Assembly (NCBI GenBank): GCA_011503125.2
Contig: WWBZ02000022.1
Span: 3,100,001 to 3,164,000, forward strand
Source: Botryosphaeria dothidea
Taxonomy: Eukaryota; Ascomycota; Dothideomycetes; Botryosphaeriales; Botryosphaeriaceae
DNA length: 64,000 nt
Reading direction: 5' to 3'
Shown: piece by piece, positions 23,841 through 31,042 of the stretch
Position numbering within the stretch: the first letter of the stretch is position 1
Layout of the letters: the number at the start of each line of letters is the position of its first letter
Notes under the pieces: model-generated
Databases searched by the model: none
Told to the model about the DNA's origin: nothing
The model's input: only the letters and a program-made list of their open reading frames with translations
Translations under genes and position numbers: made by a program

Positions 23841-23844
23841 GTTG

Positions 23845-23962
23845 TGTGCCCCGGTATAGTGCAAAAACCCGATCAGTTACTAATCGAGCCGATTAGTTAC
23901 TAAAACCCACCGATTAGTGCAATTGCACTATTCCGGAGGATTAGGGACTAATTGCCACCCCT
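23845..23962 (+). repeat. Left terminal inverted repeat (118 bp)
   Basis: Matches the reverse complement of 29245-29362 at every base. It contains two near-identical 12-mers (GATCAGTTACTA and GATTAGTTACTA) and the palindrome AGTGCAATTGCACT, candidate transposase-binding sites. Confidence 0.95.
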
Positions 23963-26501
23963 GCGTAACATTACATAAGTAATCTTTTAGTGCAAATTGT
24001 CCACCCCGGTCAACACCCCACCGACTGGTGTGAAAGCGACGATATCGGATCGCCTATATATAGAGGCTCAATTCTGCTCAAGCAGAAACAGTTTATATAA
24101 TAATAGAGGATACGGGTGGCGGTGCTTTAGAACGCTATATATAACGTATGCGTTATGCTATGCTATCGGTTTGGTCGGCCGGGTAGTAGGATAAAACGTA
24201 TCGTAAAAATTCACACGCATGGTGTTGAGAGAATTTATAAATGGGATACTCATACTAGGATACACGAAAATCTCGCATCTCTCGGACCTTTTCTTAATCC
24301 AGCCCAAGTGCCCGCCTAGATGGCACCTGCCGACGGCCCCGTTGTGACATTTGACCTTCTAATACTTCATAGCCTACTCCGGTGGCTTCCTCTAGTATAT
24401 CTTCACCGTCCTTATCATCCTTATCGTCCTCGTCCTCTTCGCTATATTTGTTTATATATAAGTGCGAAGTGTGGCACTTTAAGGTGCAGAAGCGGGCCTG
24501 CTTCGAGCACCTACACTTCTTATTTCTATAGCCGCGGGGGCCGCAGTTACAACGTACTTTAGGCTTATTAATATGCCCGTGCTCCATTTTAGCAACGTAT
24601 GCTACTGAGATCTTATTAGTACGACCGCGGAAGACGTTTTCGGGCAGGTGGTAAGTCGTATGGACGAGTATAAGCTCGTTCGGTGGAAAGAGGTGATTAA
24701 TGATCCTATATTTGGTCTAAATCTCGTAGTAGCCATTCCTGTTATTAATCACCTTGCCGAAATAGCGTCGAATATTGCCTCGTCGGTCCTGCGCGGGTAT
24801 AGGGAAGGTAACTTGGTCGTGAAGGTTAATTTGCTAATATTTGTGAGTCCTGCTGTGCTTGCTCTTTATAATCTTACGAAGTCGTTTTTGCGTGCCTCGT
24901 ACCTGTTAATCACACTAGCGGCCCTTATAGGGCGATTCGGATAGTTCTGACTGTGTAGTTAGGGTCACTCGCTCGTTAAGGTCTAAAAAGCGCACCTGGC
25001 GCGGTGTAGACCCCGCGAGGGCGAGAGTGGCAGAGGCGAGTTCCGTTGTCTTAGCCGTAATAGATTCTTCTTCTACCTCTTCTGCCGTATTCGAAGGACC
25101 CCCTACGGTATCCTCTATAGGCTTATACTCTCTTACTAACCATCTCTTAGCAGCGACGAGTTTAGCACCTCGCCACCCGGCCGCTAGTAGGTCCAGCTTA
25201 ATTATAGCGTCTCGTAGTTTAGGTAGCTCCTCTGAGCCATCATTAAGCTTATAACGGACGCGAGGATTCACCAAAATACCCTCCTTATGGAGCTCTTTTA
25301 ATCCGCCTTGGCGGATATTAATTTTAGCCACGCGCTTAATAACGTAGCTGCGTAGGGACTTATCGTTAAGCACAGGATGATCAGGTTCGTTAAAAAGAGC
25401 CCCGGAAACGGACGGAAGAGTAGGTGCTTTATCCTTGTCGTCGTGAGGGTCTAGGGTCGAGATTTTAGTAGCTGGGCAGGTGCTCTTATAGAGGAAAACG
25501 ACGTTATCGTCGTCGGCTGGGTCGTCTCGGTTTATAGGAGGAGAAAGATCGCCATCCCGGCTACTAATAGGTCTAGAGTTCCCGCCCGGATAGGGAAGGT
25601 CGGCGGGACTTACGCCCTCGGCATCCTGCTACTCGTCGTCGAGGACCTTATTAATCTCTAAGTCCTCGCGGAGCGTAGGGCTTACGGGATAAGAGTTCAT
25701 CTAGCGTCCGAAGACGATAAAGTACGGCGTCTTCCCCTTTAGAGCCCTTTTTAGCGTAGCGTTCAGCTGCATTGCGACTTCAGCGTATACGAAGGCAAGG
25801 TCTCGCTCTCCTATCGTCCTCGTAATGCTTATAAGCTTTTGCTTAACCTGAGCGTTGTTCTGCTTAATTAGACCGTTGGTCCGTGGGTGCCGAGGGCGAC
25901 TGAGGACTTGCTTAATACTAAGTTATTGCAGGAGTAGCTTCAAGGCTTCTTTAAACTCGCTACCTCTGTCGCTTTAGCATATATCGGAAGGCCTAAAGGC
26001 TGCGGCCTATCTATAGCTATATTAGCTTAATCCGGCTTATACGGGTTATTGCTTATACCGTCTAAAGTTCTTCGCCACTTTAGCAGCGGACTTAGTGCGC
26101 ATAGGGTACAACTAATAGTACTTTAAAAAGTAGTCCTTAATGCAGAGGACGTATTTATACTTCCCATATGGGTCGTTACGGAAGTCTATAAGGTCGATTT
26201 GGACGCGCTCGAAGAGACACAGAGTTACAATTGGGCGTAGCGGTGCCTTATTGTAAGATAACTCGTTCTATGTACAAAACTTGCATAGCCGCCGAAACTC
26301 GGCAACGTCATCTTCGGTGATTCCGTATCGATCTTGCGCAAGGAATTTAGTAGTCGGTTCGATGCCCGCATGATTAAGGAAGAGATGGGCCTCCTTAATC
26401 GTGTCGAACATGTGTTGGTCTCAAGAGGCATTTTGTATTGGACTACTTAGAAAAGTAAACTAAAGAGAAAAGAAAGGGGAAGAGAAGAAAGAAAGACTAT
26501 A

Positions 26502-26548
26502 ACGTAATCCACAAGCGAGTCGGACACACAAGCGAGTCGGACACGCGC
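26502..26548 (+). repeat. Left TIR of Fot1-like element (47 bp)
   Basis: Identical to the reverse complement of 28291-28337. Inside it, a 17-bp unit (ACAAGCGAGTCGGACAC) is present twice in tandem at 26511-26544, likely paired transposase-binding sites. Confidence 0.92.
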
Positions 26549-26574
26549 ATCAGACACACCAGATTCACCACCTT

Positions 26575-28215
26575 ATGCCAGCCCAAAGACGGGCCGCAAA
26601 GGCCCAACAAGAGGGCCGTAAACTTCTCGCGATTCAAGCCCTTCGCAAAAGCCAGGTTTCAAGCGGCCGAGCTGCCGCACGGCTCTACAGTGTGCCAAGT
26701 TCGAGTCTTCACGATCGCATTCACGGACGCGCTGCACGCACCGAAACACGCGCAAACAACTATAAGCTTACCGAAACCGAAGAGCAAGCCCTCGTATAAT
26801 GGATTATATCGATGGACGAACGCGGCTACCCACTAAGAATTTATGCCGTACGTAAGGCGGCTGAATTATTGCTCAAATAACGCGTAGCTTCAGCGTTAGC
26901 CTCGATTAGAAAGAACTGGCCTCGCAACTTTATTAACCGCCGCCCCGAGCTGAAAGCAAAATATACGCGTAAATATGACTACCAGAGGGCCCAATGTGAA
27001 GATCCAGTTAAATTACGGGATTAGTTCCGGCTTGTTAGTAATACGGTGCGTAAATATAGCATTGTACCTGACGATATCTACAACTTCGATAAGATTAGCT
27101 ATACAATAGGTATTATTGGAACAACACGCGTTGTTACAAGATCAGACCGACGCGGCAGACCTATAACAACACAACCAGGCGACCGCGAGTGGGTAACATC
27201 AATCGAAAGTGTCAATTCACGCGGCTAGTCGCTTCCTCCAATGCTTATCTTTACGGGCAAGGTTCACATCTCCACCTGGTACGAAAATAATAATATCCCA
27301 CGCGATTAGGTAATCACCCTCAGCGAAAACGGCTGGACGACGAACGAAATTAGTTTAGAATAGATTCGGAATATATTCGACCCAATTACAGCGCCTCGAA
27401 CGGTTAGTACACACCGGCTATTAATCCTTAACGGCCATAGTAGCCATACAACGCCTAAATTCGATCAATTTTACGCAGAACGGTCAATTATTACCCTCTA
27501 TATGCCTGCTTATTTATCACACCTTCTACAGCCTCTTAATATAGGTTATTTTTCGCCCCTAAAGGCCGCGTACCGCCGTCTCGTCGCCGAAAATGTAAGG
27601 CTTAGCATCAACCACGTCGACAAGCCTAAGTTCCTTTTAATATATAAACAAGCCCGTATAGAGGCCCTATCTACGGATAATATCCGTAGCGGCTTTATGG
27701 CAACAGGGCTTGTACTACTAGACTTAGAACAAGTGCTGTCACGGCTTTAAATCACGCTCCGAACACCGTTACTAGTACCTGCACCTACCAACACTCAGTG
27801 GCAGTCTAAAACACCGCATACTATCGTGGATTTAGAGCGCCAGGCTGCGCTACTTAAGGACCTCCTTAAGCGGCGTACACAGAGCCTACTAACGCCAACA
27901 GATCGTGCGGTAAATCAGCTTCTTAAAGGCTGCCAAATGGCAATGCACAGTGCTGTACTTTTAGCGAGTAAAAACGCTCAATTACGGGCCGTAAATGAGA
28001 AACAAAAGGCCAAAAGGCAAGGGAGGAGGTCCTATATAGCTAACGGTGACACTCTCACGGTCGCAGAAGGAGCACAACTTATACGGAAGGAAAAAGAGTG
28101 GCAAAATCCAGTCGCTGTACCAGGCCAGAGTGAGGCAAAGCAACGCGCGCCACCGCGCTATAGCGTATACGATTCACTTAAGCATAGGGCAAATAGATGC
28201 CCAAGGCGTCAATAA
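26575..28215 (+). pseudogene. RIP-inactivated Fot1-like transposase
   Basis: One frame of about 546 codons runs from ATG 26575 to TAA 28215, the usual length for Fot1 transposases. It includes an HTH-type N-terminus (ALRKSQVSSGRAAARLYSVP), the DDE core (IYNFDKISYTIG, LLILNGHSSH, SHLLQPLNIGYFSPLK) and the C-terminal tail with LERQAALLKDLL and GDTLTVAEGAQLI. About seven in-frame stops interrupt it, at sites such as RD*VITLSENGW and SLE*IRN where Trp is expected, and at Gln positions. Two catalytic Asp positions read Asn (LNGHSSH, PLNIG). All changes are the G-to-A/C-to-T type made by RIP. The transposase cannot be functional. Confidence 0.9.
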
Positions 28216-28290
28216 TTCAGTATAGTATACATATTTAATATATCCTAAGGATTTATGGTGATATCTGCCCTTAAATGTGCTGGTGGTGAC

Positions 28291-28337
28291 GCGCGTGTCC
28301 GACTCGCTTGTGTGTCCGACTCGCTTGTGGATTACGT
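28291..28337 (-). repeat. Right TIR of Fot1-like element (47 bp)
   Basis: Exact inverted copy of the left repeat, with the same tandem 17-bp unit. It is followed by the TA duplication. Confidence 0.92.
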
Positions 28338-29244
28338 TATACTAGGTTGCTGACTAATGGCTTTAGCGGAAGTTAGGTAATTCCCGTTGAGACCGCCGGG
28401 TAGATACCCGGCGGTTCATCCCTTGCTTAGGCGTAGGCCTAACAACATGTCACCCTCATAGATGACCTGCGAACGGTTAGCAGGCGTTGTAGGTGGAGCT
28501 TAATTCTAATTCGATGTAGGAGGGACCAAGAAAATTCAGAAAGCTCTCTTCTCTTCTCCTCGCATATTACATTATACTCTAATACGACAACTTACCTTCA
28601 GTTCAGGTTTACCTTTTTGGGAAAGTCGATATAAGCCCTCCTTCAACGTTGCGCCGGCACTATTATAGTAAGTGTAGTATCGACGAGCAGTCTGAGCGGC
28701 CTGGTAGGTGGGGGAGGACGCGTCGGGTAACGTTTTGATCTATCTGATGTAGTCGTTGTACCGTTTCAGGGTAAAGCGTACTCGTTTTTTCCTCCCGGTG
28801 TTACTCTGTAGGTATACTTCGAAGAATGACTTCGCGTTTGGTGGTAGAGGGTCCTCTGCGAGGTTTGAGTTGGCTGGGCGGCGGGGCGGCGCCATGGTGT
28901 TGAGGACTACAGGACTGAGAGATAGATACCTATGCCGCAGCGAAGCTACTCTTATACACCAAAATTTCGCAGGTAAGCGACGAATATCTCTATGCGACAT
29001 CGTCGCAAGCGCAACTCGTAAGTTGGTAGCACTACAATTACGCGGAAGCGGCTCCTATAGCTTAACACCATATTATCAACGCTATGCTTTTTGTGACTGT
29101 ATATATTTGATACCGACCTTTATTACTTAGGCGAAGCGAGGACTTATAATTGGTGGTAATAGCAGGGGGGTTGCTAAGCGATGCCGTACGAAACACCACC
29201 TCGTCACCGCTAAATAATCGCACGACTTACCCAAAGCAGCAGCA

Positions 29245-29362
29245 AGGGGTGGCAATTAGTCCCTAATCCTCCGGAATAGTGCAATTGCACTAATCGGTGG
29301 GTTTTAGTAACTAATCGGCTCGATTAGTAACTGATCGGGTTTTTGCACTATACCGGGGCACA
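29245..29362 (-). repeat. Right terminal inverted repeat (118 bp)
   Basis: Exact inverted copy of 23845-23962. The identity stops abruptly at 29244/23963, which defines the repeat length. It is followed by GTTG, the second copy of the target duplication. Confidence 0.95.
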
Positions 29363-29366
29363 GTTG

Positions 29367-29828
29367 TTATTCATTGTCTTTCAAATCAGAATGTCCACGA
29401 ACTCGGCCCATGCGTAGTGGCCAAGGCAGACACGACTCGCTGTTTACTTTCCAAACGCACGGCGACTACTTCAGTTGTGGGGTGATTGTGAATATTTCTA
29501 AGGAGTAACGAGGCATTGTCAGGCACCTGCAGTCGCTGACTTTGTGGCGTCTAAGCAAAGAGAACGATTTGTGCACAACCTACACGCATTGACCCAATCT
29601 CATTGGCGGCGCCTCCACAAATTTCAGGCCTCCTATACCCGGGAGAGCAGACAGACTCCCACCCTCATACTGACGTTATCGACAACATACTGCTTACGTC
29701 CCACCCGCCCCTCCGACATCATACAAATCGCTTGCAAGATGTTAAATGCAACTGTACGGTCTGAACGACCACATCTGAACGGCCTCTGCTTCCACCGTCT
29801 CGACTCAACCTGACAGTCACGCACGAAA
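29367..29828. other. Intergenic, oxidoreductase promoter next to transposon
   Basis: About 460 bp between the right end of the transposon and the ATG at 29829. No motif was recognised. The transposon therefore lies close enough to affect this promoter. Confidence 0.4.
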
Positions 29829-31042
29829 ATGTCCCGACCAGAGATGCGCGCTATCGTCGCAACGGAGCGCGGCCCAACCTCTGTTCTCAAGCCCGTGATG
29901 CTCCCTCAGCCCCCACCGCCCCAAACCCACGATCTTCTAGTCCGCGTTCGCGCAACGTCCGTCAATCCCGTCGACACCAAGGTTCGCAACGGCACCTACG
30001 ATGATTACCAGGTTCCAGGCGATCCGTTGGCCTACTACACGAAAGCTCCCGCACTGCCGCAAATCTTGGGTTATGATGGCGCTGGGATCGTCGAAGCAGT
30101 AGGATCGGATGCCGCCAATTTAGGATGGAAAGAAGGAGACGAGGTCTTCTATAGTGGAGCACCGAACCGACCGGGTTCGGATGCAGAGTTGCAAGTTGTC
30201 GATGCGCGTAGTGTAGCTAGGAAGCCCAAGAAATTGGACTGGGCCGAAGCGGCTGCATTACCGCTGACGTGGATTACCGCCTGGGAAGCGTTGCTGGAGA
30301 GGATGGAGATAAAGGAGGGAGAACAGGCGGGTATCTTGATCGTGAACGGTGCTGGAGGTGGGTAATCTCGCAACTATCCCCTGTCTGCTTCAAAAAAAAA
30401 AACAGTCTGTTGGGTCGTCACTGGACTGTCAGTCGATGAAGAGTTTGCCCACAGGACGATGTTGGAATAGGCGTCGGCTCCGTGGCTTCTCAGATCGCCC
30501 ACCATGTGCTGAAGCTCCCTGTTGTCGTAACGACCGCTTCGCGCCCGGAGACGCAGCGCTTCTCTCAATCGATGGGCGCAACGCACATCGTCAATCATCG
30601 AGAAGACCTGCCCGCTCAGATTGCGTCTCTCAATCTTTCTGTCCCTATCAAGTACATCTTCATCACGCATCGCACCGAACAATACCTCGCCCCTGCTGCC
30701 TCCATCTGTGCTCCCTTCGCAAAAGTTTGCAGCATTGTGCAGACGAAGGATGTCCCCATGTACGGCACCGAATGGATGGCTAAGGGCCTGACTTTTGTAT
30801 GGGAGTTGTTGGGAACGAAGCCGTGGTATGGCATTGAGCTGGACAGCCACGGCAAGATACTGGACAAACTGCGAAAATTCATTGACCAGGGGATAGTCAA
30901 GTCGCACCTCACGCAAAGGCTGCCTCTGACAGCTGAGGGAGTGCGTAAGGGGCATTCCCTACTTGAAGAAGGCAAGGTGATTGGCAAGATTGGGCTGGGA
31001 GTGGAGGATGGAGGCCTGAAACCCGGTGAGGCCTTTTCTTAA
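29829..31042 (+). CDS. Zinc-type alcohol dehydrogenase-like / quinone oxidoreductase (MDR superfamily)
   Basis: Two exons (29829-30357 and 30471-31042) give 366 residues. The 113-nt intron contains an A10 run and was placed to give the canonical NGAGGVGSVASQIA nucleotide-binding motif near residues 173-185. The N-terminal GroES-like fold shows VRVRATSVNPVDTKVRNG and LGYDGAGIVEAVGSD. The latter has Asp where zinc alcohol dehydrogenases have Glu/His ligands, and no structural zinc Cys cluster is visible. It thus fits the zinc-independent, NADPH-dependent quinone/enone reductase branch. Substrate is unknown. Translation starts MSRPEMRAIVATERG. Confidence 0.88.

What the first reader, a model, noticed from the sequence alone, without database searches (positions are those of the whole stretch)
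23841..29366. GINGER-like DNA transposon using a retroviral-type integrase in an ascomycete
Seen: identical 118-bp inverted repeats, TGT...ACA ends, GTTG duplication on both sides, and one minus-strand frame with zinc-binding HHCC, integrase D and D motifs and a cysteine-rich C-terminus. Known: GINGER elements encode integrases related to those of Gypsy retrotransposons and make 4-bp duplications. Inference: this is a fungal member, possibly a new family. The combination of KRBA2-like integrase and long TIRs is unusual among the Tc1/hAT/Mutator-type elements usually found in ascomycetes.
Basis: partly seen in the sequence, partly recalled or inferred. Interest (0 to 1): 0.75.

Follow-up and report, generated by a model that had tools for sequence, protein, structure and literature searches.

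The report
Integrase-driven DNA transposon in a fungus
A cut-and-paste jumping gene in a tree-infecting fungus carries a retrovirus-like integrase instead of the usual fungal transposases; it resembles the known Ginger2 elements of animals, and its copies show that it spread and was then damaged by mutations of the kind the fungal repeat defence makes.

Summary
Window 23845-29362 is a DNA transposon with perfect 118-bp inverted repeats and a GTTG duplication. The genome, inferred to be Botryosphaeria dothidea, holds five copies. Four have different 4-bp duplications (GTTG, CTTC, TATA, TACA); the fifth is damaged. The element proper is about 3.48 kb with one two-intron gene (797 aa): HHCC finger, D,D34E integrase core, Cys-rich tail, no reverse transcriptase found. 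All five copies have stops; they differ almost only by transitions, mostly in RIP context.

The window copy is longer because a 194-bp solo LTR lies in exon 2, with a 1.84-kb pogo/Fot1-like element inside the LTR. Copy C2 has the same LTR but another target duplication, so the element moved after its gene was interrupted.

In a small tree the integrase groups with Littorina saxatilis Ginger2/KRBA2-like proteins (98/94), apart from 16 Gypsy-type integrases. Duplication length, repeat length and motifs fit Ginger2; the published TGTNR ends (TGTGC here) and RTATAY target (0 of 4) do not. I call it Ginger2-like, a new variant of a known kind. Fungal Ginger was already reported (Malassezia vestige, automatic labels), so interest is moderate.

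The parts
23841..23844 (.). left 4-bp target site duplication GTTG
23845..23962 (+). left terminal inverted repeat, 118 bp, TGTGCCCCGG...; three direct CCGAT(T/C)AGT repeats at TIR positions 25, 45, 66
24294..26016 (-). exon 3 of the transposase: second D, E, middle region, Cys-rich tail, stop; broken by stops in this copy. Window exon borders transferred by eye from copy C1
26017..26058 (-). intron 2 (42 nt; the public gene model P0002 ends it 6 nt further on)
26059..26412 (-). rest of exon 2: HHCC zinc finger and first D; 26408-26412 = ACATG, one copy of the solo LTR's duplication
26413..28444 (.). inserted solo LTR (194 bp, TGTTGG...CCTAACA, duplication ACATG), split by the nested element
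26502..28337 (+). nested pogo/Fot1-like element (DDE_1 transposase, TA duplication) in the LTR; four further copies in the genome
28445..28466 (-). start of exon 2, cut off by the LTR; 28445-28449 = second ACATG
28467..28595 (-). intron 1 (129 nt, GTAAGT...CTAAC...CAG in C1)
28596..28895 (-). exon 1 of the transposase (start MAPPRRPANS)
29245..29362 (-). right terminal inverted repeat, 118 bp, 100% complementary to the left
29363..29366 (.). right 4-bp target site duplication GTTG

Best explanation
[quoted passage not shown] Its spliced transposase has a retroviral/Gypsy-type HHCC + D,D,E integrase, a long linker and a Cys-rich, possibly CXC-type DNA-binding tail, and no reverse transcriptase. 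Inferred mechanism: transposase binds the 118-bp TIRs, perhaps at three CCGATYAGT sites spaced 20-21 bp, cuts at the TGTG...CACA ends and joins them to target DNA with a 4-bp stagger, giving 4-bp duplications. Shown: the ends, the duplications, presence at five sites of which four have duplications, and movement of a lineage whose gene already carried a solo LTR. Inferred: mobilisation of that lineage in trans, excision, the binding sites, and RIP as the cause of the mutations that left stops in all five copies.
For: TIR pair and GTTG. Five copies, four with perfect, different 4-bp duplications. Pfam rve E 6.6e-13. A profile of the element plus two Littorina proteins matches PFV integrase over HHCC+DDE, E 4.6e-18. 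42% identity to Littorina saxatilis P0011 and P0012 over 77% of residues 170-320. The tree groups element, P0003, P0011, P0012 at 98/94, apart from 16 Gypsy-type rows, and at 97/95 without three odd rows. No GPY/F or YPYY match. The Cys-rich tail resembles Littorina's (score 69; 500 composition-keeping shuffles mean 38, sd 7, at least one reaching 69); Pfam's only hit to it is the CXC family, E 0.073, below cut-off. A trio of TIR 9-mers occurs in 2 of 1000 shuffles. The same LTR insertion sits in C2 and C18 with different element duplications. Of 355 variable columns 347 are transitions, 289 of them C/T before A or G/A after T.
Against: The published Ginger ends are TGTNR, these are TGTGC. The Ginger2 target RTATAY is met at 0 of 4 sites. 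One of five copies has no duplication. AU tests do not reject the element as sister to one Gypsy integrase, P0004 (p 0.075), nor P0003+P0011+P0012 as a clade without it (p 0.286). Core identity to P0004 (36%) is close to that to Littorina (39-40%). BLASTP of the C-terminal pieces gives E 1.6, and the part before the Cys tail is not detectably alike (score 30, shuffles 27.8, sd 4.3). Missing GPY/F is weak evidence: the strict pattern also finds nothing in two Gypsy proteins, P0004 and P0016, and only out-of-place matches in some others. Pfam's H2C2 model does not fire on the element. No TDD, Nematostella Ginger2, Ginger1 or Polinton sequence could be included, and that P0011/P0012 are Ginger2 is inferred.
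Confidence: 0.88

Rival explanations
1. An independent capture: a Gypsy-type integrase that acquired TIRs on its own, convergent with Ginger2.
For: Sister position to Gypsy P0004 not rejected (p 0.075); core identity to it is 36%.
Against: 98/94 support for grouping with Littorina proteins and P0003. Grouping with five Gypsy-type integrases of this genome plus P0014 is rejected (p 0.0215). Cys-rich tail like that of Littorina P0011.
Confidence: 0.08
2. A Ginger1 element.
For: 4-bp duplication, TIR within 40-270 bp, Gypsy-like integrase.
Against: No GPY/F or YPYY match, none of four duplications is CCGG or CCGT/ACGG, and Pfam shows no OTU or Ulp1 protease, against the definition in PMC2836005.
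Confidence: 0.02
3. An IS3EU/GingerRoot, IS481EU or Polinton relative (as with the Styx element of Zymoseptoria, which its authors link to IS3EU).
For: Same wider integrase group; Styx is a fungal TIR element with an integrase (PMC10853768, passages).
Against: HHCC is present here, but PMC10045372 (passages) says those groups lack it. IS3EU and Polinton make 6-bp duplications and IS3EU ends are TA..TA; here duplications are 4 bp and ends TGT..ACA.
Confidence: 0.02

Closest known systems
Ginger2 DNA transposons of animals (e.g. Ginger2-1_LS of Littorina saxatilis; PMC2836005), with Littorina proteins P0011 and P0012 (KRAB-A domain-containing protein 2-like) as the nearest sequences found
   Same: TIR length class, 4-bp duplication, TGT..ACA, HHCC + DDE, no GPY/F or YPYY; Cys-rich tail like that of P0011
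   Different: Ends TGTGC not TGTNR, target not RTATAY, 34 residues between the last D and E against 36 in P0011 (counted by eye); host is a fungus
TDD-4/TDD-5 of Dictyostelium (Ginger2/Tdd)
   Same: TIR element of similar size (3.8 kb) with Gypsy-like integrase
   Different: 5-bp duplications and 260-297 bp TIRs there (PMC2836005); sequence not available for comparison here
Ginger2-1_MG vestige, Malassezia globosa
   Same: Fungal Ginger2-type transposase
   Different: Not flanked by TIRs there (PMC2836005); here five TIR-bounded copies, four with duplications
Gypsy retrotransposon integrases (also in this genome)
   Same: HHCC + DDE core; 21-36% identity in the core over the 16 Gypsy-type rows
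   Different: TIRs instead of LTRs, no reverse transcriptase found, no GPY/F match
Styx of Zymoseptoria
   Same: Ascomycete TIR transposon with an integrase, with RIP-like mutations in copies
   Different: 36-bp TIR, 6-bp duplication, four coding sequences, IS3EU-like (PMC10853768, passages)

Membership tests
Ginger2 | H2C2 zinc finger before the core | tested here: met
   H115, H120, C149, C152 aligned with Littorina; Pfam's H2C2 model itself did not fire on the element
Ginger2 | Gypsy-integrase-like DDE core | tested here: met
   rve E 6.6e-13; D179, D240, E275
Ginger2 | no GPY/F and no YPYY | tested here: met
   strict pattern search, none found; weak, since some Gypsy rows also lack the strict pattern
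Ginger2 | TIR about 50-180 bp | tested here: met
   118 bp
Ginger2 | 4-bp target duplication | tested here: met
   4 of 5 copies
Ginger2 | ends TGTNR | tested here: not met
   TGTGC at both ends of all five copies; TGT..ACA is met, the R is not
Ginger2 | prefers RTATAY target | tested here: not met
   GGTTGT, GCTTCT, GTATAG, GTACAG: 0 of 4 (read); a preference, and n is small
Ginger2 | clusters with Ginger2 transposases | tested here: inconclusive
   98/94 with Littorina proteins and P0003, but the Ginger2 label of those rows is inferred, no TDD or Nematostella row was available, and AU tests do not exclude alternatives
Ginger1 | GPY/F and YPYY motifs | tested here: not met
Ginger1 | CCGG or CCGT/ACGG duplication | tested here: not met
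   0 of 4
Gypsy LTR retrotransposon | reverse transcriptase with the integrase | tested here: not met
   the spliced C1 protein shows rve only; the gene leaves under 1 kb of the 3.48-kb element outside it, which was not scanned on its own
IS3EU/GingerRoot | 6-bp duplication, no HHCC | tested here: not met
   4-bp duplications and HHCC present; definition from PMC10045372 (passages)

The most novel reading that the evidence does not exclude
This is a distinct fungal branch of the Ginger superfamily, alongside Ginger2. Its ends (TGTGC) and target choice differ from the animal elements, and each TIR carries a helically phased array of three transposase-binding sites two turns apart, read by a CXC-type zinc tail, a domain whose best-known members (recalled) bind DNA in chromatin regulators. 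It lets a retroviral-type integrase cut and paste DNA without any RNA step.
Probability: 0.3. Interest if true: 0.55.

Novelty: new variant of a known kind. Interest (0 to 1): 0.42.

Why it matters
Ginger elements bear on whether retroviral integrases came from DNA transposases or the reverse. In the papers I could search, complete fungal members are poorly documented. Here is an ascomycete one with its ends, duplications, introns and an ordered series of nested insertions, compact enough to test biochemically. It also gives a clean natural record of RIP-type change between copies.

Tried and rejected
Viral contig scans with two profiles and one bacterial/archaeal scan found no relative, so no extra Ginger2, Polinton or prokaryotic rows for the tree. 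An AlphaFold model of P0001 from three sequences had mean pLDDT 35. It showed four strands at residues 377-419 (block means 40-61) that would suit an SH3-like barrel, but I did not search with it and make no fold claim. BLASTP of the C-terminal piece against Littorina's gave E 1.6, and the part before the Cys tail was not significant. I considered the 42-nt region before the second D as damage rather than intron; its stops are present in the copies read (output partly cut) and the public gene model also splices there. ARAGORN found no tRNA in the C6 insert, so its SINE-like look is unproved. The 300-base left flank of the window copy has no second match, so no paralogous empty site was found; the right flank and the other copies' flanks were not searched. 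Papers whose 'ginger' hits were only author names: PMC7367193, PMC6829926, PMC6937934, PMC8159818, PMC6256676. RepBase and Dfam were not available. A 2017 survey of fungal cut-and-paste transposons, looked up by a DOI from recall, is not held.

Full report
Observation. The window carries two 118-nt arms, 23845-23962 and 29245-29362, exactly complementary, with GTTG on both sides (23841-23844, 29363-29366). The TIR finds eleven matching pieces forming five pairs in the 51.7-Mb genome. The genome is probably Botryosphaeria dothidea: protein P0002, annotated from that species, lies on a contig of 6,145,880 bases, the length of contig C1 here. Trimmed at the TIR ends the copies are 5518 (window, C18), 3481 (C1), 3680 (C2), 4017 (C6) and 3467 (C7) bases. 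Duplications are GTTG, CTTC, TATA, TACA in C18, C1, C2, C6. C7 has GGTG and TGAC, so none.

Gene. Copy C1, which has no insert, gives one minus-strand gene: exon 1 of 300 nt, intron 1 of 129 nt (GTAAGT, CTAAC, CAG), exon 2, intron 2 of 42 nt, exon 3; 797 aa with two internal stops. The introns rest on splice signals and frame; the public model P0002 supports intron 2 with an acceptor 6 nt further on. In the window the gene runs from 28895 to 24294 and its match has 14 stops in exons 2-3 plus intron 2 (three in the intron, by eye) and one TAG in exon 1. All five copies have stops within exons (the output was partly cut). P0001, 96% identical over 69% of the query, from a source labelled lgn, is open over 549 aa, so less damaged copies exist elsewhere. 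The protein has H115, H120, C149, C152, D179, D240 and E275, 34 residues between the last two. Pfam: rve 6.6e-13, and no reverse transcriptase or protease among hits to E 1. A three-sequence profile matches PFV integrase, E 4.6e-18, over finger and core. The tail CNCGPRGCRNKKCRCSKQARFCTSKCHTSHSCTN (as in P0001) resembles CXC (Tesmin/TSO1) domains: Pfam's only hit, E 0.073, below cut-off. That CXC domains bind DNA is recalled.

Relatives. Three protein searches (in only the 7994 and 7998 candidates sharing most words were scored) gave P0001 and P0002, two Littorina saxatilis proteins (one named KRAB-A domain-containing protein 2-like), one rve+Josephin protein (P0003) and Gypsy-type polyproteins. 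PMC2836005 (outline, passages, sections 6 and 8 read) describes Ginger2-1_LS from Littorina saxatilis, so I take P0011/P0012 as Ginger2-type; that is inference. Of 37 rows matching the profile I used 20 in the tree and left out 17 that were partial or duplicates, P0001 and P0002 among them. I labelled 16 rows Gypsy: eleven by their precomputed Pfam domains, five from this genome by sequence alone, without checking them for reverse transcriptase. The tree (254 columns) separates element+P0003+P0011+P0012 from these 16 at 98/94, and at 97/95 without P0006, P0015, P0016. AU tests: element with P0004 p 0.075; element with the five genome rows plus P0014 p 0.0215; the other three without the element p 0.286. 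Core identity: 39-40% to the three, 21-36% to the 16. The tail scores 69 against a shuffle mean of 38, sd 7, at least one of 500 shuffles reaching 69; the preceding region is no better than shuffles, and BLASTP of the whole C-terminal piece gives E 1.6.

History. The window copy is 2037 bases longer than C1 at one place. That insert begins and ends as an LTR, TGTTGG...CCTAACA, 194 bp, with ACATG duplicated; C2 has it alone, its two duplicate copies reading ACATA. The LTR query gives 21 matching pieces in the genome, several in pairs kilobases apart. In C18 the LTR is split by 26502-28337, with inverted arms (68 nt, 90%, slightly overlapping the flank), DDE_1 E 1.1e-16, TA duplicated relative to C2 (read) and four other copies at 97%: a pogo/Fot1-type element (type name recalled). 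The order is transposon, solo LTR, movement, nested element. C2 and C18 share the LTR but have different element duplications, so the element moved after its exon 2 was interrupted. The simplest reading is transposition by protein from another copy; a shortened protein made from inside the LTR is not excluded. C6 has its own 536-base insert.

RIP-type change. Of 3440 ungapped columns 355 vary: 347 transitions, 289 of them C/T before A or G/A after T; 8 others. Pairs among C18, C1, C2, C6 differ by 0-1 transversions, pairs with C7 by 7-8. No null for context was computed, and I did not trace each stop to its mutation; at least one C1 stop (codon 134, CGA in other copies) is not CpA. Only 1 derived site is exclusive to C18+C2, against 28 for C18+C6, which suggests that most of the change came after C2 and C18 separated. 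Variable sites thin out at both ends. The window's two TIRs stayed identical.

TIR. CCGATCAGT, CCGATTAGT, CCGATTAGT stand at TIR positions 25, 45, 66, 20 and 21 bp apart, about two helical turns. A trio of 9-mers with at most one mismatch occurs in 2 of 1000 dinucleotide shuffles; the spacing itself was not tested. C7's left TIR lacks 41 columns in the alignment, the distance from repeat 1 to repeat 3, which suggests loss between repeats.

Comparison. Ginger2 in PMC2836005: TIR 50-180 bp, 4-bp duplication (5 in TDD), TGTNR ends, RTATAY target, H2C2 and DDE, no GPY/F or YPYY. Here the tested structural features are met except TGTNR (TGTGC) and RTATAY (0 of 4), and clustering is inconclusive for want of references. 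I therefore call it Ginger2-like and do not file it as a strict Ginger2. Absence of GPY/F is weak, since the strict pattern also misses P0004 and P0016 and hits some Gypsy proteins only out of place. Ginger1 (GPY/F, YPYY, CCGG/CCGT) and IS3EU/GingerRoot/IS481EU/Polinton (no HHCC; PMC10045372, passages) are disfavoured on tested features. PMC10871703 (passages) reports Ginger2-like transposases also acquired by crustacean nimaviruses.

In print. Nine searches led to fungal Ginger as a Malassezia vestige (PMC2836005), a RepeatModeler label in Metarhizium (PMC11457142, passages), a single element in Umbelopsidales (PMC7928374, passage) and two pieces totalling 141 bp in Cordyceps (PMC5982816, passages). 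Of most listed papers I saw only the listing. In these I saw no account of a complete ascomycete Ginger with ends and duplications, but most subscription papers, RepBase and Dfam were out of reach.

Noticed in passing
window 26502-28337: pogo/Fot1-like element nested in a solo LTR; four further copies at 97% (C58, C12, C2, C47). Its transposase frame is broken by stops in the window.
   Followed up: partly
G000 C6:155368-155891: Three matches to the 194-bp LTR lie head to tail, an LTR array rather than a normal retrotransposon.
   Followed up: no
L010 (copy C6), 536-base insert: Insert with a B-box-like GTTCGAATC and a TCTA-repeat tail, SINE-like, with an apparent TATATATTTRAT duplication (by eye); ARAGORN finds no tRNA.
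   Followed up: partly
L012 (copy C7): Copy without target duplication, left TIR short by 41 bp (the distance between TIR repeats 1 and 3), a 27-bp extra stretch, and the only copy with several transversions: an older or rearranged lineage.
   Followed up: partly
P0003: A 1069-aa protein joining an integrase that groups with the Ginger2-like rows to a Josephin-type domain (E 2.3e-5, just below Pfam's cut-off); recalls the OTU/Ulp1 domains of Ginger1. Organism not given.
   Followed up: no
window 29814-30365, + strand: Open frame with an alcohol dehydrogenase GroES-like domain, about 450 bp from the element's right end.
   Followed up: no
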